From: Streptomyces globisporus
GTDB taxonomy: Bacteria > Actinomycetota > Actinomycetes > Streptomycetales > Streptomycetaceae
Direction of reading: 5' to 3'
Length of the DNA stretch: 64,000 nucleotides
NCBI GenBank assembly: GCA_014649555.1
Contig: BMTG01000002.1
Span: forward strand, 496,001-560,000
The position numbers were made by a program, and so were the translations under genes. Below the pieces are notes generated by a model. That model made no database searches. It saw only the letters and a program-made list of their open reading frames with translations, and had not been told where the DNA came from. Of the stretch, positions 1 to 9,840 are shown in pieces. Position 1 is the first letter of the stretch. Every line of letters begins with the position of its first letter.

Positions 1-344
1 GCGAGGCGGTCGGGTTCGGTCCAGTCCGGCCGGTAGACCCGGTATTTGACCTCGTCGGCGCCGAACCCTTCGTACGGGAAGCCGTTGAGGGTGACCACTT
101 CCAGGCCGCGGCTGTCGAGTTCGGAGCGCAGGGCGCGCAGTTCGGCAGGGTCGTTGATCAGGGTGCGGGCGGCGTCCCGGGCGAGCCAGAGGCCGATGCC
201 GAGCCGGTCCCGGCCGAGTCGACGGCGGACGGGTTCGCAGTGGTCGCGGAGCTGGGCGCGGACGCCGTCGAGGGTTTCGGCGGGGTGGACGTTGGTGCAG
301 TAGGCGAGGTGGACGGTGGAGCCGTCCGGGTGGCGGAAGCGCAT
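1..344 (-). CDS. eboE: Metabolite traffic protein EboE, N-terminal part
   Basis: Only the first about 114 residues are inside the window; the gene runs off the left edge. The protein begins MRFRHPDGSTVHLAYCTNVH, followed by HPAETLDGVRAQL and VVTLNGFPYEGFG. This matches the start of the xylose-isomerase-like TIM barrel proteins called EboE, which open with a strand carrying YCTNVHP and a second strand ending NGFPYG-like. The ATG at 342-344 lies 7 bases after the stop of the TatD-like gene, so it belongs to the same transcript. In cyanobacterial and Pseudomonas Ebo clusters this family helps process or move a small metabolite, but the reaction is not established. The function is inferred from the family and the neighbours; the catalytic half cannot be seen. 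Confidence 0.85.
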   Translation of the reverse strand, partial: MRFRHPDGSTVHLAYCTNVHPAETLDGVRAQLRDHCEPVRRRLGRDRLGIGLWLARDAARTLINDPAELRALRSELDSRGLEVVTLNGFPYEGFGADEVKYRVYRPDWTEPDRL

Positions 345-351
345 GGCCGCC

Positions 352-1200
352 TCACTCCCCGCCACGCAGGATGGAGTTGCCCTCGTGGAGCGGGTCGGGG
401 GTGAGCACGTCCAGCTGGAGGCGGCCGCTCTGGCCGTAGAAGGCGACCGGGTTGCGCCACAGGACCTGGTCGACGTCGTCCTCGGTGAAGCCGGCCTTCA
501 GCATGGCGTCGGCGACCTTGCGCGTCTTGAGGGGGTCGCTCTTGCCCCAGTCGGCGGCCGAGTTCACGAGGATCTTCTCGGTGCCGTGGTTCTGGAGGAT
601 GGTGACCATGCGGTCCTCGTCCATCTTGGTGTCCGGGTAGATGGAGAACCCGGCCCAGCAGCCGCTGTCAGTGGCGGCCTTTACGGTTGTTTCATTGAGG
701 TGGTCGAGCAGGACGAACTCCGGGGGGAGGTTCGATTCGCGGATGACGTCGATGGTGCGGTGGAGACCGGCGAGTTTGTCGCGGTGCGGGGTGTGGACGA
801 GCGCGGGCAGGCCGTGGTCGGCGGCGAGCTGGAGCTGAGCCGCGAGCGCGTGGTCCTCGGCCGGGGTCATGGAGTCGTAGCCGATCTCGCCGACGGCGAC
901 GACGGAGTCCTTCACGAGATAGCGGGGCAGCGCGTCCAGGACGGGGGTGCAGCGGGGGTCGTTCGCCTCCTTGGGGTTGAGGGCGAGGGTGCAGTGGTGG
1001 GCTATGCCGTATTGGGAGGCGCGGAAGGGCTCCCAGCCGAGCAGCGCGTCGAAGTAGTCGAAGAAGCTGGCGGGCGAGGTGCGGGGCTGGCCGAGCCAGA
1101 AGGAGGGTTCGACGAGCGCGCGGACGCCCGCGTCGTACATCGCCTGGTAGTCGTCGGTGGTGCGGGAGGTCATGTGGATGTGGGGGTCGAAGATGCGCAT
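352..1200 (-). CDS. eboB: TatD-like metal-dependent hydrolase (EboB type)
   Basis: A 282-residue amidohydrolase-fold protein. The start MRIFDPHIHM carries the HxH metal pair at residues 6-8. Further candidate metal ligands are the glutamate in VGEIGYDS, His in ALVHTPHRD and LLDHLNE, and the late Asp in NSAADWG. This is the layout of the TatD/urease superfamily, and the variant that sits in Ebo clusters. The ATG at 1198-1200 shares one base with the TGA of the EboA gene, so translation is coupled. A longer reading frame extends upstream to 1437, but that stretch is Arg/Pro-rich shadow of EboA and is not used. Substrate is unknown; acting on the same metabolite as EboE and EboC is inference. 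Confidence 0.88.
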   Translation of the reverse strand: MRIFDPHIHMTSRTTDDYQAMYDAGVRALVEPSFWLGQPRTSPASFFDYFDALLGWEPFRASQYGIAHHCTLALNPKEANDPRCTPVLDALPRYLVKDSVVAVGEIGYDSMTPAEDHALAAQLQLAADHGLPALVHTPHRDKLAGLHRTIDVIRESNLPPEFVLLDHLNETTVKAATDSGCWAGFSIYPDTKMDEDRMVTILQNHGTEKILVNSAADWGKSDPLKTRKVADAMLKAGFTEDDVDQVLWRNPVAFYGQSGRLQLDVLTPDPLHEGNSILRGGE

Positions 1201-1916
1201 CAGGACTCCTCCGTGGGGGCGGGGGCTGCGGGAGCTGCGGTCGGCCGGGCCGGGTGGTCGCCCTCGTCGGCCGGAGCCGTGAGGGCGAGAACCGTGCGCA
1301 GGTCCTCGGGGACGGGGCGGCCCGCCGCCGTGCGTTCGGCGGCGAAGTCGGTGAGCATGCGGGCGAGTTCGGCATCTCCGCGGGCGCGGTCGTCGAGCCG
1401 GGCCACGGCCGTGACGGGCACCTCGGTGAACAGGCACTTCAGTACGGCGTGCCGCCAGGCGTGCCGGTCCAGGTGGTCGGCGGCGTAGGGGCCGACAGCT
1501 GCCGCGACCAGCCGGGTGTCGTTGGCGCGCAGGGCGTCCTCGACGAGCGGGAGGGCGGTGTCGCCGAGGTCGAGGAGGTGCAGGGTGAGCAGGACGGCGC
1601 GGCGTTCGGCGGCGGTGCCCTGTTCGTAGAGCCGGGTGACGGAGGACAGGGAGGCGTGGGCCTCGACGAGGAGGAGGGAGCGTACGGAGTCGGCGTGCTC
1701 GGGTCCGCAGTGCCGGCCCGCGGCGGCGTAGCGCAGTTCCCAGGGCGGGGAGGCGTAGGAGCTGGCCTCCGGGCGGGGGGTGTCGGGGGTGGCTGTCGTG
1801 CGGGCCGCGTCGTGGGCGGCCTCCGCCAGGGCCTCGTCCAGCCAGGCGCGGGCGGCGCCGCCGAGTCCGGCGTCGAGTTCCTTGCGGGACTTGAGCGAGT
1901 TGGGGGACGTCAGCAC
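1200..1916 (-). CDS. eboA: EboA domain protein
   Basis: A 238-residue, mostly helical protein with no catalytic motif that I can see. The middle part (VTRLYEQGTAAERRAVLLTL, then LGDTALPLVEDALRANDTRL and YAADHLDRHAWRHAVLKCLF) is the typical EboA pattern of HEAT-like helix pairs. The last 30 residues are Pro/Ala-rich and probably disordered. The start is a GTG at 1914-1916, overlapping the previous gene by 7 bases, and the stop shares a base with the EboB start. EboA has no known reaction and may act as a scaffold or partner for the other Ebo proteins; that is a guess from its fold. Confidence 0.85.
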   Translation of the reverse strand: MLTSPNSLKSRKELDAGLGGAARAWLDEALAEAAHDAARTTATPDTPRPEASSYASPPWELRYAAAGRHCGPEHADSVRSLLLVEAHASLSSVTRLYEQGTAAERRAVLLTLHLLDLGDTALPLVEDALRANDTRLVAAAVGPYAADHLDRHAWRHAVLKCLFTEVPVTAVARLDDRARGDAELARMLTDFAAERTAAGRPVPEDLRTVLALTAPADEGDHPARPTAAPAAPAPTEES

Positions 1917-2815
1917 GGGGCGGCTCCCTTCGCCGTGGCGGTCTTGGCGGTCGCTGCGGTGCGCAGCCCCGCGTCCCTGGTCATGGCGTCGCGCAGGAAG
2001 TCGATCGAGGTGCGGGCCAGTTCGGGGCCGGCGTGGGAGTGGCGGGGCAGTTCGACGACGGTGAGGCCCCGGTAGTCCGAGGCGGCCAGGGCGGCGAGCA
2101 CGGGCGGGAAGTCGATCTCCCCGTCACCGAACGGCAGGTGCTCGTGGACTCCGCGCCGCATGTCCTCGATCTGGACGTGCCGGAGCCAGGGGGCGGAGTC
2201 CCTGATGCACTCCACGGGTGAGGCGTCCTCCAGGCACTGGCAGTGGCCGATGTCGAGGGTGAGGCCGAGCGGTCCCGGGTCGCCCAGGAGGCCGCGCAGG
2301 TGGTGGAAGTCGGCGAGGGTGGCGAGGAGGTGACCGGGTTCGGGTTCGATCGCGAGGGGGATGCCGGACCGGTCGGCGGCTTCGAGGACGGGGGTGAGCG
2401 ATTCGGTGAGCCGTTTCCACGCGGTGTCCGCCGTGGTGCCGGGCGGGGTGATGCCGCTGAAGCAGTGGACGGCGTGCGCGCCGAGTTCGGCCGCCACGTC
2501 GACGGCGCGGACCAGCAGCGCGGTGCGGGCGGCCCGGGCGTCGGGGTCGGGGTCGAGGAGGGAGGGGCCGTGCTTGCGGCGCGGGTCGAGGACATAGCGG
2601 GCGCCGGTCTCCACGGTGACCCGGAGCCCGAGGGAGGTGAGCCTGCGGCGGACCTGGCGGGTGCGCTCGGTGAGGTCCGGGGCCATCGGGTCCAGGTGCA
2701 TGTGGTCGAGGGTCAGGCCGACGCCCTCGTAACCGAGGTCGGCGAGCAGGCCGAGGGCGTCGTCGAGGCGGAGGTCGGTGAGCCCGTTGGTGCCGTATCC
2801 GAGGTGGAGGGTCAT
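1910..2815 (-). CDS. Sugar-phosphate isomerase/epimerase family TIM barrel in Ebo operon
   Basis: A 301-residue xylose-isomerase-like TIM barrel (AP endonuclease family 2). The start MTLHLGYGTNGLTD is followed by the family's acidic and His metal ligands: Glu in LAIEPEPGH, Asp and His in LTLDIGHCQC, HVQIEDMRRGVHEH, and Glu in TVVELPRHSH. The ATG overlaps the stop of the prenyltransferase gene by 4 bases (ATGA) and its own stop overlaps eboA, so it is firmly inside the operon. It is separate from EboE, giving the cluster two TIM-barrel isomerases. Classical Ebo clusters carry a dehydroquinate-synthase-like EboD instead, so this gene may fill another step. The substrate is unknown. Confidence 0.82.
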   Translation of the reverse strand: MTLHLGYGTNGLTDLRLDDALGLLADLGYEGVGLTLDHMHLDPMAPDLTERTRQVRRRLTSLGLRVTVETGARYVLDPRRKHGPSLLDPDPDARAARTALLVRAVDVAAELGAHAVHCFSGITPPGTTADTAWKRLTESLTPVLEAADRSGIPLAIEPEPGHLLATLADFHHLRGLLGDPGPLGLTLDIGHCQCLEDASPVECIRDSAPWLRHVQIEDMRRGVHEHLPFGDGEIDFPPVLAALAASDYRGLTVVELPRHSHAGPELARTSIDFLRDAMTRDAGLRTAATAKTATAKGAAPC

Positions 2816-4500
2816 GTGAGGCTCACCTTCCGGGCGAGGCTGCGGGCGAGGGGGACGAGCCCCATGACGGCGAGACCGGTGACGGGTGATCCGGCGCGGG
2901 CGGCGAGCGCGGCCTGGAGCGGGATCATGGCCCGGATACCGCCGCCGACCGCCCGCTGGGTCAGGGGCGGCGACGGGTTCAGCGCGGCGTGCAGGAGGGG
3001 TGGTCCGGCGGTGCGGAGGTAGGCGCCGGTGAGCGCGAGGGTCAGGAGGCGGGTGGGGTCGGCGGCGGTCCTGCCGAGCAGGCTTTCGACGCGTGCAACG
3101 GGACCCGGGCCTGCGCCGGGGCCGGCCGGGGCCCAGCCGGGGAGGCCGCTCCCGAGCGTGCCCTCGGGCCGCGAGGCCGCACCGGGCGCCGCGGACTGTC
3201 CGGGGAGGCCGCCCCCGGACTGCGGGGCCGCGCCGAGGGCGGCGGCCCACCCGGGGAGGCCCTCGAGGGGCAATGCTCGTCCCGGGCCTGCGCCGGAGTC
3301 GAGGGCTCGGGTGAGGCGGGCCTCCGGGTGCGGGGCGGCCCCGGCGAAGGCTGGGCTCGTCGTGGTGAGGCCGACCGGCCCCTGCCCCGAGCGACCCCAG
3401 CGCCCCCACCTCTCCCCCAGCACCGCAGCCGCGAGTGCCGTCGTCGTGGCGAGCACCGCCAGCGGCGTGCCCGTGGAGCCGCCCTGCGTCTCGTGGCGCG
3501 ATACGGCGGTGACGCCGTACGTGTGCGCCCCGAGCACCAGGGCGGCGGGCAGCGCGGGCAGGGCCCCGGTCAGGCCGCCGCGCGCCGGGGGCGGCAGGAT
3601 GGCCGCCGCCGGTCCGGCGGTGCGTATCGCGCCCGCCGTCGCCTTCGGCCCGGCAACGTTGTCGGGCCGACCGCCTCCACCCGACGCACCGGCACCCGTA
3701 CCCCTGGCCGTGCCTGTCGCCGCAGCCGTCGCCCCCAGCAGCAGGTCCAGCGAGCGGGCCGCCGCCATGGCCGCCGGGCCCGCCTTCGTGTGCTTCAGGT
3801 GCAGGTCGTAGGCCCAGACCGTGGCGGCCAGGCCCGTGGCGACCGTCAGTGCGGGGCGGCCCGCCCGGGCCGCCAGGGCAAGGCCCGCGGCGGTCAGGGC
3901 CCCGGCCGCGCCCAGGGCCGCCGCCGGGCTGATGCGGCCCGAGGGGATCGGGCGGTGCGGGCGGTCGACGGCGTCCTCGTCGCGGTCGGCCCAGTCGTTG
4001 AGGGCCATCCCGGCCTCGTACAGGCAGAGCGACGCGCCGATCGCCAGCGCGGTGCCCCGGCCGGGCCGACGGCCCACCGCGGCCGCGCCCGCCAGGGCGT
4101 CCCCGGGCACGGAGAACAGGGCGGAGACGCGCAGCAGTTCCGCCCAGGCCCGCAGGCGCTGCCGGGGCCCGCCCGGGCCGGTACCCGCTCCGGCAACCGA
4201 GCCACTGCCGGGTCCGGCAACCGAGCCGGCACCCGCCCCCGTGCCCGAGCCGGCACCCGGCCCTGAGGCCGCGTCCGGTCGGCCCGGGCCTGCGTCCGCG
4301 CCCTGTTCCCCGTTCCGGCCCGTGGGGGGCGGTCCGGGCCTGTCCGGTGCGGGCGCAGTCCCACCCGCGCCGGACAGGCTGTCATGGGTCACGGCGTCCT
4401 TCCGCACGCCGTGAGCAAAATCGTTCCGTCGCCCGGGCCCCGCCGGGAGGGCCGCCAGGGCCGCGACCAGGGCCGGAAGGGCGCGTCCTCGCCACCTCAC
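2812..4500 (-). CDS. eboC: UbiA-type prenyltransferase (EboC / SCO3242 family) with low-complexity insertions
   Basis: A 562-residue integral membrane protein. The UbiA signature is ALNDWADRDEDAVDRPHRP at about residues 167-185, carrying the first Mg2+-prenyl diphosphate motif (NDxxDxxxD type). A second conserved loop is WAYDLHLKHTKAGP. The family is normally about 280-300 residues; here the extra length is a Gly/Ala/Pro-rich N-terminal 110 residues and two internal low-complexity stretches, one with repeated GLPGW units. The GTG at 4498-4500 overlaps the upstream stop by 4 bases (GTGA), supporting the long start, though an internal GTG near 4387 is possible. It should prenylate an unknown small acceptor at the membrane. 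Confidence 0.85.
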   Translation of the reverse strand: MRWRGRALPALVAALAALPAGPGRRNDFAHGVRKDAVTHDSLSGAGGTAPAPDRPGPPPTGRNGEQGADAGPGRPDAASGPGAGSGTGAGAGSVAGPGSGSVAGAGTGPGGPRQRLRAWAELLRVSALFSVPGDALAGAAAVGRRPGRGTALAIGASLCLYEAGMALNDWADRDEDAVDRPHRPIPSGRISPAAALGAAGALTAAGLALAARAGRPALTVATGLAATVWAYDLHLKHTKAGPAAMAAARSLDLLLGATAAATGTARGTGAGASGGGGRPDNVAGPKATAGAIRTAGPAAAILPPPARGGLTGALPALPAALVLGAHTYGVTAVSRHETQGGSTGTPLAVLATTTALAAAVLGERWGRWGRSGQGPVGLTTTSPAFAGAAPHPEARLTRALDSGAGPGRALPLEGLPGWAAALGAAPQSGGGLPGQSAAPGAASRPEGTLGSGLPGWAPAGPGAGPGPVARVESLLGRTAADPTRLLTLALTGAYLRTAGPPLLHAALNPSPPLTQRAVGGGIRAMIPLQAALAARAGSPVTGLAVMGLVPLARSLARKVSLT

Positions 4501-5753
4501 GCCTGGTCCCGCAGCCGCTCGGCGAAGGTGAGCAAGGTGGCGTACTGCTCGGCGAGTGCCGCCGATGTGCCGCCGTCCGGGTCCTTGAAGTAGAAGCCCA
4601 GCTCCGGCAGGGGGCCGCTGATCCCGGTCTCATGGGCGCGGGCGAGCAGTCGTGCCAGGTCCAGGACCAGCGGGGCGGCGAGGGCCGAGTCGCAGCCCTG
4701 CCAGATGGTCTGGAGGATCATGCGGGAGCCGAGGAAGCCGTCGAAGGCGATGTGGTCCCAGGCGGTCTTCCAGTCGCCCATGGCGGGCACGTCGTCGATG
4801 TGCACCTCGCCCTCGGGGGCGGTGCCGAAGGTGTCGGCGAGCACGCGTTCCTTGCCCGCGTTCTTGGCTGCGGCCGCCGCCGGATCGGCCAGCGCCGCCC
4901 CGTCCCCGCCGCCCAGGAGGTTCGACCCGGACCACGCCCGTACGGCGAGGGCGCGCTGGAGGAACATCGGGGCGAGCACGGAGCGGAGCAGCGTCTGGCC
5001 GGTCTTCCCGTCGCGTCCGGCATGGGGAAGTCCGCTGGAGGCGACGGTGTCGGTGAGCGCGGGGGTGCGCAGTCCGGTGGACGGGGTGAAGTTCGCGTAG
5101 GAGCATCCGGCGCGGAGGGCGGCGGCCGCGTAGAGGGAGCTGGCGGGCAGCCGGGGGTCGCCGGGTCCTGGGGCGGGTTCGGTGGAGGCGACGTTGATCA
5201 CGACGGTGCGGGCCAGGTCGTGGCGGTGGGCGAAGTCGGTGAGGTCGGCGGCGAACGCGGAGATGAGTTCCTGGTCGGTGCGGGTGTCTCCGGGGAGGGG
5301 GCCGCCGGGGCGGATCTCGGCGTCGGCGGCGTCGAGTTCGGCGCGTACGGCCGAGGGCAGCCCGTGCGGGAGGACGCCGCCGTCGGCCAGCGCCTCGGCC
5401 CGCTTCGACAGCGGGCAATCGAGGGTGTCGTGGCCGCCGAAGACCAGGTCGGTCAGGGCGGGCAGCCCGCTGTCGGCGAAGGGGGGCGTCTCGGTGACCA
5501 TGCCGGTCGGCGGGTGGAGGCCCGCGGCGATGGCGGCGCAGCCCGCGGTGGCAGTGGTCGCCACGGAGCCGCGTGCTCCGATGAACCAGACGCCGGTGCG
5601 GCCCGCGACCTGCGCACGGTCCTCGGCACCGGCCAGGCCCATGGCCTCCGGACGGCCCGCGGTCCCCGCGAGGCCGGGGGCCCCGAAGGTGAGCGGCGCG
5701 TCGGTGCGGCCTGGGGCGTCGGTTCGGCCTTCACGATCGGCGTGTGCGGTCAC
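4497..5753 (-). CDS. ino1: Inositol-3-phosphate synthase
   Basis: A 418-residue NAD-dependent myo-inositol-phosphate synthase family member, which turns glucose-6-phosphate into inositol-3-phosphate. Visible motifs are the Rossmann segment GVWFIGARGSVATTATAGCA, the NVASTEP strand, NFTPSTGLRTPAL, GRDGKTGQTLLRSVLAPMF, and DHIAFDGFLGSRM. The first 50 residues are extra and poorly conserved. The start is GTG at 5751-5753 behind a clear AGGAGG box. It is the first gene of the operon and its stop overlaps the prenyltransferase start by 4 bases. A role in making an inositol-containing Ebo metabolite is inferred; it could equally be a divergent family member with another sugar phosphate. Confidence 0.88.
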   Translation of the reverse strand: MTAHADREGRTDAPGRTDAPLTFGAPGLAGTAGRPEAMGLAGAEDRAQVAGRTGVWFIGARGSVATTATAGCAAIAAGLHPPTGMVTETPPFADSGLPALTDLVFGGHDTLDCPLSKRAEALADGGVLPHGLPSAVRAELDAADAEIRPGGPLPGDTRTDQELISAFAADLTDFAHRHDLARTVVINVASTEPAPGPGDPRLPASSLYAAAALRAGCSYANFTPSTGLRTPALTDTVASSGLPHAGRDGKTGQTLLRSVLAPMFLQRALAVRAWSGSNLLGGGDGAALADPAAAAAKNAGKERVLADTFGTAPEGEVHIDDVPAMGDWKTAWDHIAFDGFLGSRMILQTIWQGCDSALAAPLVLDLARLLARAHETGISGPLPELGFYFKDPDGGTSAALAEQYATLLTFAERLRDQA

Positions 5754-5847: not shown

Positions 5848-8800
5848 CTACTTCGAGGGCAGCTCCTTCAGTTGGATGTTGCGGAAGGACACCTGGTCGT
5901 CGGCTCCGTGGTTCTGGAGACCGATGTAGCCGTCCTTCAGACTGCGGGCGGGGTCGGTGTTGGTGAAGTCGTTGATCTTCGCTCCGTTGAGGAAGATCTG
6001 CAGACGTTCACCCTGAACCTTGATCTCGTAGCTGTTCCACTGTCCCGGCGGCCGCAGGACGCGGTCGCGAGCCTTGATGTTGGCGGATTTGAAGGTGTAG
6101 ACGGCGCCGGTGGTGCGGTCGGCGGCGTCGGTGGCGTCGATCTGGATCTCGTACCCGTTGTTGACCGCCGACCAGGGGTCGTCGGACTCCGGGAAGCCCA
6201 CGAAGATGCCGGAGTTGTCGTCGCCGGCCATCTTCCAGTCGAGCTTCAGCGAGTACGACTTCAGCTCCTTGGCCTGGTAGGTGAGGAGACCCATGCCGCC
6301 CTCGGAGTGCAGGGCGCCGTCACTGACGGAGAACTTCCCCGGGCCCGCCTGCTTCCACCCCTCCAGCGTCTTGCCGTTGAAGATCGGCCGATAGTCGGTG
6401 TCCGGCTTGCAGTCGGCCTTGACCTGGCCGGTGGCGTAGCGCAGCCCGCCCAGGACGTGGCTGCGGAAGGCCGGTTCGGCGTAGGACTCCTTGGTGTGGC
6501 CGAGGCCGGTGTAGAAGGAGCGGCCGCCCTGGTAGGTCTGGCACCAGGAGATCGGGTGGTCGCCCTTCATGTTGCCGCCGGTGTAGGTGGTCTCGTCGAG
6601 TGTGGCGAGAACCTTGGCCTTGTCCCGGGGGTTGGTGCGGTAGTTGTACCACTCGTCGGTGCGCTCCCACTCCTCGTCCAGATGGGCGGTGGCGGGGTGG
6701 TCGTGGTCCTCGACGCGGACGGTCGCGGGCTGGATCTGCGGGTGCGAGTCGAAGTAGGCGCCGACGAGGCCGCCGTAGAACTCCCAGTCGTACTCGGTGT
6801 CGGCGGCCGCGTGGATGCCGACGTAACCGCCGCCGGTGGCCACGTAGTTCTCGAACGCCTTCTGCTGTTCGGCGTTGAGCACGTCACCGGTGGTGGAGAG
6901 GAACGCGACGGCGTCGTAGCGGGCCAGGTTGCTGGTGGTGAACTGGGCGGCGGACTCGGTGGAGTCGACCGTGATGTTGGTGTCCTTGCCGATCTCCTTC
7001 AGGGCCTCGATGCCCGCGGGGATCGAGTCGTGGCGGAAGCCGGCGGTCTTGGAGAAGACCAGGACGCGCTTGGCGGTCTTGTCGACCGGGGTGTTGGACA
7101 GTTCGAAGTCGTCGACGTCGTAGAGCGCTCCGTCGCCGCCCTTGAAGACGAGGAAGAGTTCGGTCTGCTTCTTGGGGGCGCCGCGCAGCGGGATGTCGAC
7201 GTCCTGGAAGGTGTCCCAGCTGCCGGTCACCGGGACGGGCCCGGAGCCGAGGATCTTGCCGGTGGGCGATCCCGCGCGGACTTCGAGGAAGCCGCCGGAG
7301 CCGGCCGAGGAGATCCGAGCGGTGAGCTTGGTGGAGTTGCCGAGGACGTAGGTGTCGAAGGAGATCCAGTCGTCGTTGTGGATGTCGCCGACGGTCTTTC
7401 CGCCGTGCGCGCTGGACTTGCTCGGCGTGGTGACGCCGGAGGAGTCGTCGAAGTGCTCGGCCTGCCGGTGCTTGGGCTGGAGCCGGGAGGCGTCCTTGCC
7501 GGTCAGCTTGGCCTGGCCGCCACCGCCGTTGTCTAGGTACGAGGCCGAAATGCCGCCGTAGATATTGGCGTTGGGGTCGTGGCCGCCTTCCATGGCGGTC
7601 TTGATGGTGCCTTCACAGCCGTGCTCGGTGGTGATGTCGTGGCCGTGGCTGTCGTGGCCCAGGGTGAACTTGACCTCGACCTTGGTGCAGTCGATGGTGC
7701 CGTCCTCCGGGTCGCTGACGTTCACCTTGAACGGCACGGAGTCGCCGAACTCGAAGAGCTGCCCGTCCTCGGGGAGCACCAGCTCCACGGTCGGGGCGGT
7801 GTTGCCGACGGTGACGTGGACGCTGGCGGAGCCGGTGCGGCCCGTCGGGTCCTCGGCGGTCAGGGTCGCGGTGTACGTGCCGTTCTTCTTGTACGTGTAC
7901 GTCGGGTTGGCGGCGGTGGAGGTGCCGCCGTCACCGAAGTCCCAGGAGTAGGTCAGCGGGTCGCCGTCGCCGTCCGCCGTGCCGGCCGAGGAGAACTTCA
8001 CCTTCAGCGGCGCGGTGCCCGACGTCTTGTTCGCCGAGGCCTCGGCGATGGGCGAGCGGCCTCCGGTGGCGTTCTCGATGCGGTAGAGCGCGGAGTTCTC
8101 GTCGCCGCCGAACCAGGCGAGGCCGTAGTCGAGGACGTACAGCGCCCCGTCCGGGCCGAAGGCCATGTCCATGATCTGGGTACCGGACCACGGCACCTCG
8201 TTGATGGACTGGACGGCGCCGTCGGCGTCCTGCTCGATGCGCTTGATCCACTGGCGGCCGAACTCACCGGCGAAGAAGTCGCCGTCGTAGGCCTCGGGGA
8301 ACTTGACCGGGGAGTCGAGGTCCGCGTCGTAGCGGTAGACGGGTCCGCCCATCGGGGACTCGGAGCCGGAGCCGAACTCGGGCACCGAGCCGCCGTCGTA
8401 CGGGATCCACGCGGCCTCGGCAGGCGGCAGGTCGACGAGTCCGGTGTTGTGCGGCGACTCGTTCTTCGGGGCGGCGCAGTCGAATGCCGCGCCCGATGCC
8501 TTGGTGGCGAAGTCGTAGTCGATGTACGGCTCGTTGTCGCCGACGCAGAACGGCCAGCCGAAGTTGGCGGCCTTCGTCACGCGGGCGAACTCGACCTTGC
8601 CCGCCGGTCCGCGCTTGGGGTCGGCCGCGCCCGCGTCGGGGCCGTAGTCGCCGACGTACACGGTGCCGGTGGCCTGGTCGACGGAGAAGCGGAAGGGGTT
8701 GCGGAAGCCCATCGCGTAGATCTCGGGGCGGGTCTTGTCCGTGCCCGGCTCGAAGAGGTTGCCCTCGGGGACGGTGTACGAGCCGTCGTCGGCAACCTTG

Positions 8801-9567
8801 ATGCGCAGGATCTTGCCGCGCAGGTCGTTGGTGTTGCCCGAGGTGCGGCGGGCGTCGAACGCCGGGTTGCGGTCGGGGCGTTCGTCGATCGGGGTGAAGC
8901 CGTCGGAGGCGAAGGGGTTGGTGTCGTCGCCGGTCGAGAGGTAGAGGTTGCCGTCCTTGTCGAAGTCGATGTCACCGCCGACGTGGCAGCAGATGCCGCG
9001 CGAGGTGGGGACGTCCAGGACCTTCTTCTCGCTGGCGGTGTCGAGGGTGCCGTCCTCGTTGAGGACGAAGCGGGAGAGCCGGTTGACGCCGTCGAACTTC
9101 GCGAAGTCGGCGGCGGTGCCGGTCTCCGGGGCGTCGCCCGCCGGGGTGTCCATCGGGGGCGCGTAGAAGAGGTAGATCGCCCGGTTCTCGGCGAAGTCCG
9201 GGTCGACGCCGACGCCTTGGAGGCCTTCCTCGTCGTGCGTGTACACGGGGAGGGTGCCGGAGATCCTGGTGTTGCCGGCGCTGTCGGTGATCCGCAGCTC
9301 GCCGCCGCGCGAGGTGTGCAGCACGCTGCGGTCGGGGAGGACGGCGAGCGACATGGGCTCGCCGGTCTCCTCGGCGCCCTTGGCGAGGGTGACTTGCTGA
9401 AAGTCCTCCGCCAAGGGCTCCTCGTGCCCGGGGTGCCCCGGGTGGGCGGTGGCGCCGGGCGCGGAGCCGAGGGTCAGGGTCGCGGCGGCGAGCAGGCCGC
9501 CGGTGAACAGCGCGAGGGTCTTTCGGACGCGGGTCCGGGCCAGGAGCCGCTTTCTGGTTCTGTGCAC
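5848..9567 (-). CDS. Secreted multidomain protein: sorbosone/glucose dehydrogenase-like, PKD, CBM, ThuA, DUF1080
   Basis: A 1239-residue exported protein. A basic start and hydrophobic run (TLALFTGGLLAAATLTLG) end in a likely signal peptidase site near residue 36. Domains in order: a six-bladed propeller of the PQQ-type sugar dehydrogenase family (about 50-510, with SRGICCHVGGDIDFDKDGNL and SGNTNDLRGKILRI); a PKD domain (about 520-590, YSWDFGDGGTST); a carbohydrate-binding-like domain (about 705-825); a ThuA domain (about 827-1050, GYVGIHAAADTEYDWEFYGG); and a C-terminal DUF1080/3-keto-disaccharide hydrolase jelly roll (1056-1239, FNGKTLEGWK). The GTG at 9565-9567 is behind CCGGAGGACC; frames upstream to 9831 are not needed. 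It likely oxidises or cleaves sugars outside the cell. Confidence 0.9.
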   Translation of the reverse strand: MHRTRKRLLARTRVRKTLALFTGGLLAAATLTLGSAPGATAHPGHPGHEEPLAEDFQQVTLAKGAEETGEPMSLAVLPDRSVLHTSRGGELRITDSAGNTRISGTLPVYTHDEEGLQGVGVDPDFAENRAIYLFYAPPMDTPAGDAPETGTAADFAKFDGVNRLSRFVLNEDGTLDTASEKKVLDVPTSRGICCHVGGDIDFDKDGNLYLSTGDDTNPFASDGFTPIDERPDRNPAFDARRTSGNTNDLRGKILRIKVADDGSYTVPEGNLFEPGTDKTRPEIYAMGFRNPFRFSVDQATGTVYVGDYGPDAGAADPKRGPAGKVEFARVTKAANFGWPFCVGDNEPYIDYDFATKASGAAFDCAAPKNESPHNTGLVDLPPAEAAWIPYDGGSVPEFGSGSESPMGGPVYRYDADLDSPVKFPEAYDGDFFAGEFGRQWIKRIEQDADGAVQSINEVPWSGTQIMDMAFGPDGALYVLDYGLAWFGGDENSALYRIENATGGRSPIAEASANKTSGTAPLKVKFSSAGTADGDGDPLTYSWDFGDGGTSTAANPTYTYKKNGTYTATLTAEDPTGRTGSASVHVTVGNTAPTVELVLPEDGQLFEFGDSVPFKVNVSDPEDGTIDCTKVEVKFTLGHDSHGHDITTEHGCEGTIKTAMEGGHDPNANIYGGISASYLDNGGGGQAKLTGKDASRLQPKHRQAEHFDDSSGVTTPSKSSAHGGKTVGDIHNDDWISFDTYVLGNSTKLTARISSAGSGGFLEVRAGSPTGKILGSGPVPVTGSWDTFQDVDIPLRGAPKKQTELFLVFKGGDGALYDVDDFELSNTPVDKTAKRVLVFSKTAGFRHDSIPAGIEALKEIGKDTNITVDSTESAAQFTTSNLARYDAVAFLSTTGDVLNAEQQKAFENYVATGGGYVGIHAAADTEYDWEFYGGLVGAYFDSHPQIQPATVRVEDHDHPATAHLDEEWERTDEWYNYRTNPRDKAKVLATLDETTYTGGNMKGDHPISWCQTYQGGRSFYTGLGHTKESYAEPAFRSHVLGGLRYATGQVKADCKPDTDYRPIFNGKTLEGWKQAGPGKFSVSDGALHSEGGMGLLTYQAKELKSYSLKLDWKMAGDDNSGIFVGFPESDDPWSAVNNGYEIQIDATDAADRTTGAVYTFKSANIKARDRVLRPPGQWNSYEIKVQGERLQIFLNGAKINDFTNTDPARSLKDGYIGLQNHGADDQVSFRNIQLKELPSK

Positions 9568-9801
9568 GTTGGTCCTCCGGAGAGTGCCGGTTGTACGGGC
9601 GGGTGTAGCCGTGCCGTGCCGCGCGGGGACTGCCGCGCGTGCGTCACCGGAGACGGGAGTGACCCCGGTGACGCGAGTCATGTCGTGTACACGTGGTGGA
9701 CGGTAGACCTGTTCGTCCTCGACGGAAAGCCCTTGTGCAACAGGTAAGTCGAACTTCTGCTTCCGGCAGGACAAAGAGATTTCCGGGCAGGACGAGGCAG
9801 C

Positions 9802-9840
9802 CCCGGGGGCGGGAGTGGTGCCGTGCACCATGCCCCCGGG
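9802..9840 (-). terminator. Hairpin at the end of the sugar operon
   Basis: A 9-bp GC stem (CCCGGGGGC at 9802-9810 with GCCCCCGGG at 9832-9840). Its 21-base loop can fold again through GGTG/CACC. It lies 16 bases past the stop of the isomerase gene on the minus strand, so it marks the end of the 17246-9856 transcript and separates it from the large secreted protein. Confidence 0.6.

What the first reader, a model, noticed from the sequence alone, without database searches (positions are those of the whole stretch)
1..5753. Ebo-type metabolite cluster in an actinobacterium, led by inositol-phosphate synthase
Five genes match Ebo cluster families (EboE, TatD-like EboB, EboA, UbiA-type EboC and an isomerase) and are chained by 1-8-base junctions behind ino1. 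In cyanobacteria the Ebo cluster moves scytonemin precursor to the periplasm, and in Pseudomonas it gives anti-grazer activity. The streptomycete product is unknown. This is the best candidate here for an undescribed system.
Basis: partly seen in the sequence, partly recalled or inferred. Interest (0 to 1): 0.85.

Follow-up and report, generated by a model that had tools for sequence, protein, structure and literature searches.

The report
Streptomyces Ebo cluster with inositol-phosphate synthase
This is a widely conserved Streptomyces version of a known but poorly understood bacterial gene cluster (Ebo), in which the usual ring-forming enzyme has been swapped for an inositol-phosphate synthase, a clue to what small molecule the cluster makes.

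Summary
Window 1-5753 (minus strand) carries ino1-eboC-isomerase-eboA-eboB-eboE. Among 115 eboE loci compared, 92 have ino1 plus the extra isomerase, 8 have eboD, none has both, and none has ino1 without the isomerase. In 98 of 101 genus genomes this dedicated Ino1 and EboE are present or missing together. The Ino1 keeps the catalytic lysines (19 of 19). EboF, in 34 of 34 homologues from five phyla, differs at four metal-site positions of its superfamily, so it is probably not an ordinary phosphodiesterase. Apparently secreted beta-propeller enzymes recur next door. In 4 of 8 genomes with a second, type-II cluster, the ino1 cluster lacks eboC.

Best reading: an Ino1-type Ebo pathway making a prenylated inositol-derived lipid or cofactor that helps move a small molecule out of the cell. 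The cyclase swap is shown at sequence level; product and transport role are inferred, the latter by analogy with Nostoc scytonemin. New variant of a known kind. My searches found no paper describing the swap, but NCBI already names most of the genes.

The parts
4497..5753 (-). ebo-type ino1: inositol-1-phosphate-synthase-fold cyclase, 418 aa, in place of eboD
   Evidence: Pfam PF07994 + PF01658 over cut-off; best PDB relative 1u1i, E 1e-58; K297, K301, K329, K390 and N278 present in 19 of 19 cluster Ino1s aligned; NCBI model of mycothiol Ino1 only 25 bits, cut-off 638
2812..4500 (-). eboC-type UbiA prenyltransferase (SCO3242 family); the ORF has a low-complexity N-terminal extension and insert, so the true start is uncertain
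   Evidence: NF045897 375 bits, cut-off 260; NDxxDxxxD motif in 26 of 26, second acidic motif reduced to one Glu in 24 of 26
1910..2815 (-). xylose-isomerase-like TIM barrel (iso), accompanies ino1 in ebo clusters
   Evidence: PF01261 155 bits; present in 92 of 92 ino1-bearing eboE loci and in 0 of 8 eboD loci
1200..1916 (-). eboA
   Evidence: NF035938 EboA domain 160 bits, cut-off 50; all-helical model with mean pLDDT 92.8, no significant PDB match
352..1200 (-). eboB, TatD-like metal-dependent hydrolase
   Evidence: PF01026 over cut-off; H7, H9, E105, H136, H167, D217 in 27 of 27 sequences aligned
1..344 (-). eboE, 5' part only; the gene continues to G000:C2:495169 outside the window and is followed by eboF (L003:9754-11172)
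   Evidence: NF035939 430 bits, cut-off 250, for the whole gene
5848..9831 (-). GSDH + PKD + CBM6 + ThuA + 3-keto-disaccharide-hydrolase protein with a signal-peptide-like N-terminus (by eye), 94 bases upstream of ino1; recurrent neighbour, membership of the pathway inferred
   Evidence: Pfam domains; in the block ThuA-ino1-eboC-iso-eboA-eboB-eboE-eboF-tatIso in 61 of 116 loci; a relative lies within about 5 kb of eboE in 4 of the 7 other-genus EboE genomes that have one

Best explanation
This is an Ino1-type Ebo pathway. The dedicated Ino1 closes glucose 6-phosphate to an inositol phosphate (or a related cyclitol phosphate), replacing the sugar-phosphate cyclase EboD of other Ebo clusters. 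The isomerase, EboE and EboB then modify the ring. EboC, in the membrane, attaches an isoprenoid to it. EboA is a helical scaffold. EboF, an NPP-fold protein with a remodelled metal site, does something other than plain phosphodiester hydrolysis. The product is a prenylated cyclitol lipid or cofactor that helps carry a small molecule across the cytoplasmic membrane, where exported beta-propeller enzymes encoded next door can act on it. Shown at sequence level: gene content, the ino1/eboD exclusivity in the loci compared, co-inheritance, intact Ino1 residues, altered EboF residues, neighbours. Inferred: every reaction, the product, and the transport role (by analogy with Nostoc scytonemin, PMC6282210).
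For: 115 eboE loci (chosen by me from the lists): 92 ino1+iso, 12 iso without ino1 or eboD, 8 eboD only, 3 none of these (one broken, one cut, one lone eboE); none with both ino1 and eboD, none with ino1 but no iso. Presence/absence in 101 genus genomes, Ino1 counted as present at best E below 1e-12: both 71, neither 27, EboE alone 2, Ino1 alone 1 (fragments). Distances of Ino1 track EboE, EboF and EboB across 60 loci (r 0.94-0.96, 0 of 500 permutations as high). dN/dS of the window genes against S. parvus L094 is 0.05-0.24 except eboC 0.47. Catalytic lysines kept in 19 of 19. An ino1+iso Ebo cluster also occurs in Gemmatirosa, another phylum, beside a DUF7133/HEAT protein with a signal-like N-terminus. 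ScyD/ScyE-family genes sit directly upstream of ino1 in two Streptomyces plasmids. EboE's only PDB profile match is IolI, weak (E 2e-4). Type-II clusters (eboC-iso-eboA-B-E-F, mostly with a P450) lack ino1; 4 of 8 genomes with both types lack eboC in the ino1 cluster, against 0 of 69 other ino1 loci (Fisher p 5e-5). Three further named loci without eboC all have another eboC elsewhere in the genome.
Against: No product, reaction or transport is shown anywhere in this lineage. The best-assayed EboC homologues prenylate quinolines in vitro (PMC9235831); cyclitols are not among the results I read. Ino1-fold enzymes can make other cyclitol phosphates (6k96 is named a five-membered-cyclitol-phosphate synthase). 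Two genomes keep a type-II cluster with no ebo-Ino1 (G408, G460), so this Ino1 is not always needed, although each has a distant Ino1 match (E about 5e-6). EboC sequences do not split cleanly by cyclase type: three of seven eboD-type EboCs score slightly better as SCO3242 than as EboC. Linkage, shared ancestry and my choice of loci inflate the statistics; outside Actinomycetota only plasmid-borne clusters were seen. EboF may not be a hydrolase at all. GSDH/ThuA neighbours are lacking in several ino1-type loci (L046, L051, L053, L058, L064, L068, L086, L088, L181, L219).
Confidence: 0.45

Rival explanations
1. The cluster makes a free-standing prenylated cyclitol natural product (defence or anti-grazer compound) that is itself the end product, not a carrier.
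For: Pseudomonas EDB mutants in ebo genes become edible to nematodes (described in PMC6282210, section read). On Streptomyces plasmids the cluster or eboE appears in or beside biosynthetic genes. Ten of eleven type-II clusters carry a P450 match.
Against: Each of the Nostoc ebo mutants made accumulates the same scytonemin precursor rather than different intermediates (PMC6282210; eboD was not analysed there). 107 of 150 genus genomes carry EboE, broad for a specialised metabolite. The contexts are diverse, which fits an auxiliary function better.
Confidence: 0.3
2. In Streptomyces the genes have been recruited to sugar or inositol metabolism together with the flanking GSDH/ThuA/3-keto-disaccharide-hydrolase protein and the Tat-like isomerase, rather than to lipid or metabolite traffic.
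For: The flanking genes are carbohydrate enzymes by family and are conserved around the block in most core loci; three TIM-barrel isomerase-like proteins occur in one neighbourhood.
Against: A membrane prenyltransferase and EboA/B/E/F are kept under constraint, also in loci without the flanking genes (L046, L051, L053, L086, L088). The same seven genes appear beside apparent natural-product genes.
Confidence: 0.15
3. Nothing new: an ordinary Ebo cluster whose EboD happens to be encoded elsewhere, with ino1 only a chance neighbour.
For: Ebo clusters with scattered genes are in print (PMC5133447).
Against: No convincing EboD in the genome; ino1 in the cluster in 92 of 115 loci including one in another phylum; co-inheritance with EboE; no locus with both cyclases.
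Confidence: 0.05

Closest known systems
Ebo cluster eboABCDEF of cyanobacteria, Bacteroidota, other bacteria and eustigmatophyte plastids (PMC5133447)
   Same: Homologues of eboA, eboB, eboC, eboE and eboF in one tight cluster
   Different: No eboD; ino1 and an extra isomerase instead; EboC falls in the SCO3242 family by NCBI's model; gene order differs
Nostoc punctiforme ebo genes in scytonemin export (PMC6282210)
   Same: Same core proteins; ScyD/ScyE-family genes next to the cluster in two Streptomyces plasmids
   Different: The window's own neighbour is a GSDH/ThuA protein, not a ScyD/E one; export role not tested in Streptomyces
UbiA-297/EboC prenyltransferases (PMC9235831)
   Same: UbiA superfamily, NDxxDxxxD-type motif
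   Different: Those clusters are described with eboD; the acceptor here is unknown and predicted to be a cyclitol
SCO3242/SCO3243 of the S. coelicolor CDA region (PMC3610822, passages)
   Same: By name, an SCO3242 transferase next to a myo-inositol phosphate synthase
   Different: The S. coelicolor sequence itself was not fetched; the window cluster has the GSDH/ThuA neighbourhood

Membership tests
Ebo cluster (six-gene, eboA-F) | EboE present | tested here: met
   NF035939 430 bits, cut-off 250
Ebo cluster (six-gene, eboA-F) | EboA present | tested here: met
   EboA domain model 160 bits, cut-off 50; the stricter EboA-family model 62, cut-off 320, is not met
Ebo cluster (six-gene, eboA-F) | EboB (TatD-like) present | tested here: met
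   PF01026; expected metal-site residues in 27 of 27 sequences
Ebo cluster (six-gene, eboA-F) | EboC (UbiA) present | tested here: inconclusive
   UbiA Pfam and SCO3242 model met; NCBI EboC equivalog model 115 bits, cut-off 250, not met
Ebo cluster (six-gene, eboA-F) | EboD sugar-phosphate cyclase present | tested here: not met
   None in the cluster; own-genome PF01761 matches lie elsewhere. Hence filed as a variant, not as a canonical Ebo cluster
Ebo cluster (six-gene, eboA-F) | EboF present | tested here: met
   PF01663 232 bits, adjacent outside the window
Inositol-1-phosphate synthase | Fold and catalytic residues | tested here: met
   Pfam; residues aligned with 1u1i and with the mutant entries 3qvw, 3qvx, 3qw2; 19 of 19
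Inositol-1-phosphate synthase | Converts glucose 6-phosphate to inositol phosphate | not testable with these tools
   Needs an enzyme assay
NPP/alkaline-phosphatase-superfamily hydrolase (EboF) | Dinuclear metal site | tested here: not met
   In 34 of 34 EboF homologues the positions aligned with the NPP Asp, His, Asp, His are V/A, Q, E, Y; Thr, one Asp and the last His are kept. That these are the metal ligands is recalled
Small-molecule export function of Ebo | Loss stops export of a metabolite | not testable with these tools
   Known to me only from Nostoc (PMC6282210)

The most novel reading that the evidence does not exclude
Actinobacteria and at least one Gemmatimonadota run the Ebo pathway on inositol phosphate instead of an EboD product. 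The Ebo product is then a new class of isoprenoid-cyclitol lipid whose head group can be changed by swapping the cyclase, and which serves as a general carrier or cofactor for moving small molecules to exported beta-propeller enzymes. EboF is a repurposed phosphodiesterase fold.
Probability: 0.3. Interest if true: 0.85.

Novelty: new variant of a known kind. Interest (0 to 1): 0.58.

Why it matters
What the Ebo pathway makes has been an open question since it was named. A natural exchange of its cyclase (eboD for ino1 plus an isomerase) says which step is interchangeable and points to a cyclitol head group. It also moves the question into Streptomyces, where deletion and labelled-inositol feeding are routine. 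If the export role holds, it would be a lipid-assisted route for small molecules in one of the main antibiotic-producing genera. The altered EboF metal site casts doubt on the published guess that EboF is a phosphate-ester hydrolase.

Tried and rejected
Considered and rejected: (a) ino1 as a chance neighbour or a duplicate of the housekeeping gene: the distant Ino1 of these genomes is mostly 26-28% identical over part of its length and sits on a very long branch. (b) EboD elsewhere in the genome: none convincing. (c) A clean split of EboC into SCO3242 type with ino1 and EboC type with eboD: not supported by scores (one of the ten proteins sent, L066, was a wrong frame and gave no hit). (d) EboA identification by fold: a good model, but no significant PDB match; the best is HEAT-like smu.31/AlkD2 at E 0.4-0.9. 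(e) The EboF model is only moderate (mean pLDDT 68.8); its nearest folds are Xanthomonas NPP and phosphonoacetate hydrolase. The residue argument rests on the sequence-profile alignment, not on the model. One row (L114) of the 35 in A3 was a mis-extracted EboE; it was in the profile and was dropped before the 34-of-34 count. (f) Sigma-70 and terminator scan: none found. (g) Literature on ThuA/DUF1080 with isomerases: nothing useful in the listing. (h) ThuA dN/dS values against L139 and L085, and tatIso against L085, come from mis-extracted or non-orthologous genes and were not used. (i) Loci L151, L157 and L160 show no or almost no eboC, but in L151 and L160 the gap is a run of N and L157 has runs of N and a disordered order of genes, so they were not counted as deletions. 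(j) G513's ino1 locus (L267) has only partial eboC and eboF hits and was left out of the 8-genome count.
Full report
What is there. The window is G000:C2:496001-560000 of an 8.2-Mb genome. Its EboE is 98% identical to those of Streptomyces parvus and S. globisporus. On the minus strand lie ino1 (5753-4497), an SCO3242-type UbiA prenyltransferase (4500-2812), a xylose-isomerase-like gene (2815-1910), eboA (1916-1200), eboB (1200-352) and eboE, which runs off the window. Reading 12 kb further shows eboE ending in a 4-base overlap with eboF (472 aa, PF01663), then a sugar isomerase with a twin-arginine-like N-terminus (by eye) 66 bases on. Upstream of ino1, 94 bases away and on the same strand, is a 1327-aa ORF with GSDH, PKD, CBM6, ThuA and 3-keto-disaccharide-hydrolase domains and a signal-peptide-like stretch near its N-terminus (by eye; no predictor was run). 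Profile scores are given under the observation check.

What is missing. EboD, the sugar-phosphate cyclase of known Ebo clusters, is not in the cluster. PF01761 finds only a strong match elsewhere in the genome and a weak one below cut-off. The ino1 of this cluster is not the mycothiol-type enzyme (25 bits against a 638 cut-off). Its closest solved relative is 1u1i (E 1e-58), against 4e-5 for 1gr0 (that these are the archaeal A. fulgidus and the M. tuberculosis enzymes is recalled). Residues that align with K274, K278, K306, K367 and N255 of 1u1i are present in 19 of 19 cluster Ino1s aligned. Three of these are the positions changed in 3qvw, 3qvx and 3qw2, as the printed alignments show; their roles are recalled.

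Conservation. EboE is found in 19 of 396 genomes across the phylum (18 over cut-off) and in 107 of 150 of the genus (104 over cut-off). The genome scan returned the best 80 of at least 588 loci, so it is biased to close kin. Of these 80, 60 had enough flank and all 60 have matches to ino1, the isomerase, eboB, eboE and eboF; the other 20 are cut by contig ends. In 116 loci that I chose with eboE, the tally is: ino1 and iso without eboD 92; iso without ino1 or eboD 12; eboD without ino1 or iso 8; none of these 3 (L055 broken, L087 a lone eboE, L224 cut by a contig end). No locus has both cyclases, and none has ino1 without iso (tblastn E 1e-6). The eboD loci are Azospirillum, Mycetohabitans, Ketogulonicigenium, Salipiger, two Deinococcus, Aureibacter and one genome of the window's own phylum, G381. 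One ino1+iso cluster is outside the phylum: Gemmatirosa kalamazoonensis, confirmed by Pfam. Eleven of the 12 iso-only loci are a second kind of cluster (type II), eboC-iso-eboA-eboB-eboE-eboF, ten of them with a P450 match; in seven an inositol-monophosphatase-family gene and an FAD oxidoreductase lie upstream (Pfam checked on three P450s and one of each of the others). The twelfth, L063, is a nested duplication whose ino1 side was not covered.

Co-inheritance. In 101 genus genomes searched with the cluster Ino1 (present if best E is below 1e-12, fragments included), EboE and Ino1 are both present in 71 and both absent in 27. EboE alone occurs in 2 (G408, G460, which have type II only) and Ino1 fragments alone in 1 (G480). 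Pairwise distances of Ino1 and EboE, EboF and EboB over 60 loci correlate at 0.94-0.96, as EboE and EboF do with each other (0.96), with 0 of 500 permutations reaching the value. Linkage and common descent contribute to both results. dN/dS against S. parvus (L094) is 0.05-0.24 for the block except eboC (0.47, partly low-complexity sequence).

Sharing of eboC between clusters. In the genus sample, 77 loci have ino1. Four lack eboC (ino1-iso gap 207-710 bases against a median of 1235; L061 keeps a 39-residue remnant), and all four genomes also hold a type-II cluster with eboC. With a type-II partner 4 of 8 lack eboC; of the other ino1 loci 0 of 69 do (Fisher p 5e-5; G513 left out). I then tested the idea on named genomes. 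Six eboC-less named loci (L103, L114, L130, L135, L157, L160) and ten loci that I picked as controls were searched. L114, L130 and L135 each have another over-cut-off SCO3242 gene elsewhere in the genome. L157 and L160 have assembly gaps there and cannot be judged; the control L151 likewise. Of the other nine controls, eight have one over-cut-off SCO3242 gene and one (L117) has two. The two cluster kinds therefore probably share EboC activity; simple decay of a redundant copy would look the same, and eboF is also reduced or missing in L073, L114 and L135.

EboF. The HMM alignment of 35 rows to 2gsn (NPP) and 1ei6 (phosphonoacetate hydrolase) places EboF V26, Q215, E254 and Y255 where those enzymes have Asp, His, Asp and His, while T59, D211 and H431 align with kept residues. 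After dropping one mis-extracted row, these states hold in 34 of 34 sequences from five phyla (V or A at the first position). That these are the metal ligands is recalled knowledge of the superfamily. The published view of EboF as a hydrolase of a phosphate-containing substrate (PMC5133447, section 14) is therefore doubtful.

Other proteins. EboB keeps the residues expected of TatD metal sites in 27 of 27 sequences. EboC keeps NDxxDxxxD in 26 of 26, but its second acidic motif is reduced to one Glu (24 of 26). EboA is modelled as an all-helical protein with high confidence and has no significant structural match. EboE's only PDB profile hit at E up to 0.01 is IolI, weak.

Neighbours. The GSDH-type protein was counted in the 10 other-genus genomes with EboE. 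Seven have such a gene at E up to 1e-20, and in four (G204, G162, G051, G075; two of one genus) one lies within about 5 kb of EboE; in G268, G097 and G279 none does. From copy numbers and genome sizes I estimate about 0.07 expected by chance (my arithmetic). Gemmatirosa has a DUF7133/HEAT protein and a sugar isomerase near its cluster. Two Streptomyces plasmids have a ScyD/ScyE-family gene directly upstream of ino1 and a multicopper oxidase downstream; two of the 60 full named loci have a match to it downstream of eboF. Salipiger has a PQQ-dependent dehydrogenase near its eboD-type cluster. That these families are beta-propellers is recalled. In Nostoc, Ebo is needed to bring the scytonemin monomer to the periplasm, where ScyE is thought to act (PMC6282210, read). 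These parallels are the basis for the export reading; none is proof, and ten ino1 loci show no such neighbour among the queries used.

Literature. PMC5133447 (outline, passages, part 1 of sections 12 and 14, sections 18 and 21) proposed an isoprenoid-cyclitol product from eboD and eboC and noted actinobacterial fusions of EboA with a xylose-isomerase-like domain. PMC6282210: outline, part 1 of section 6, section 8. PMC9235831 (outline, sections 5 and 7) reports farnesylation of quinolines by EboC homologues. PMC3610822 (passages) lists SCO3242, a putative transferase, and SCO3243, a myo-inositol phosphate synthase, in the CDA region. Searches for EboA with inositol-3-phosphate synthase (0 papers), for ebo terms (114 papers, 30 listed, many unrelated) and for NCBI family names (8 papers) showed no description of the ino1/eboD exchange in the listings; the library lacks most subscription journals and all preprints.

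Verdict. A real, common and constrained cluster, best called an Ino1-type variant of the Ebo cluster. The cyclase exchange and the EboF site are the new points. The prenylated-inositol product and its export role are inference.

Noticed in passing
window 2812-4500 and loci L151, L160 and the contig-cut loci: eboC has low-complexity extensions and inserts in this lineage. In 10 of the 20 contig-cut loci the first gene left is eboC, and in L151 and L160 most or all of eboC lies in runs of N, so the gene is often missing from assemblies.
   Followed up: partly
L063 (G456:C78:4500-24000): Two ebo clusters appear nested: iso-eboA-eboB-eboE, then eboA-eboB-eboE-eboF from a divergent type, then another eboF and the Tat-like isomerase of the first.
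   Followed up: no
L087 (Streptomyces sp. NBC_01244 plasmid): A lone eboE sits inside what is annotated like a type II polyketide cluster, with no other ebo gene in the 19 kb.
   Followed up: no
L086 (Streptomyces sp. AMCC400023 plasmid): The seven-gene cluster lies beside glutamine synthetase, amidase, adenylosuccinate lyase and GNAT genes and flavin monooxygenases, reminiscent (from recall) of kinamycin-type diazo biosynthesis.
   Followed up: no
L092 and L215: A hypothetical and a ferritin-like protein precede eboD-type clusters in Mycetohabitans and Aureibacter, two different phyla.
   Followed up: no
L056, L059, L062, L184, L187, L222, L225: Type-II ebo clusters have an inositol-monophosphatase-family gene and an FAD oxidoreductase upstream (Pfam checked in L056 only).
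   Followed up: partly
L223 (G480): An ebo-type ino1 fragment and a Tat-isomerase match remain in a genome without an EboE hit, probably a decayed cluster.
   Followed up: no
G000:C2:322038-322292 (L005): A weak 3-dehydroquinate-synthase-family match below cut-off, away from the cluster.
   Followed up: no
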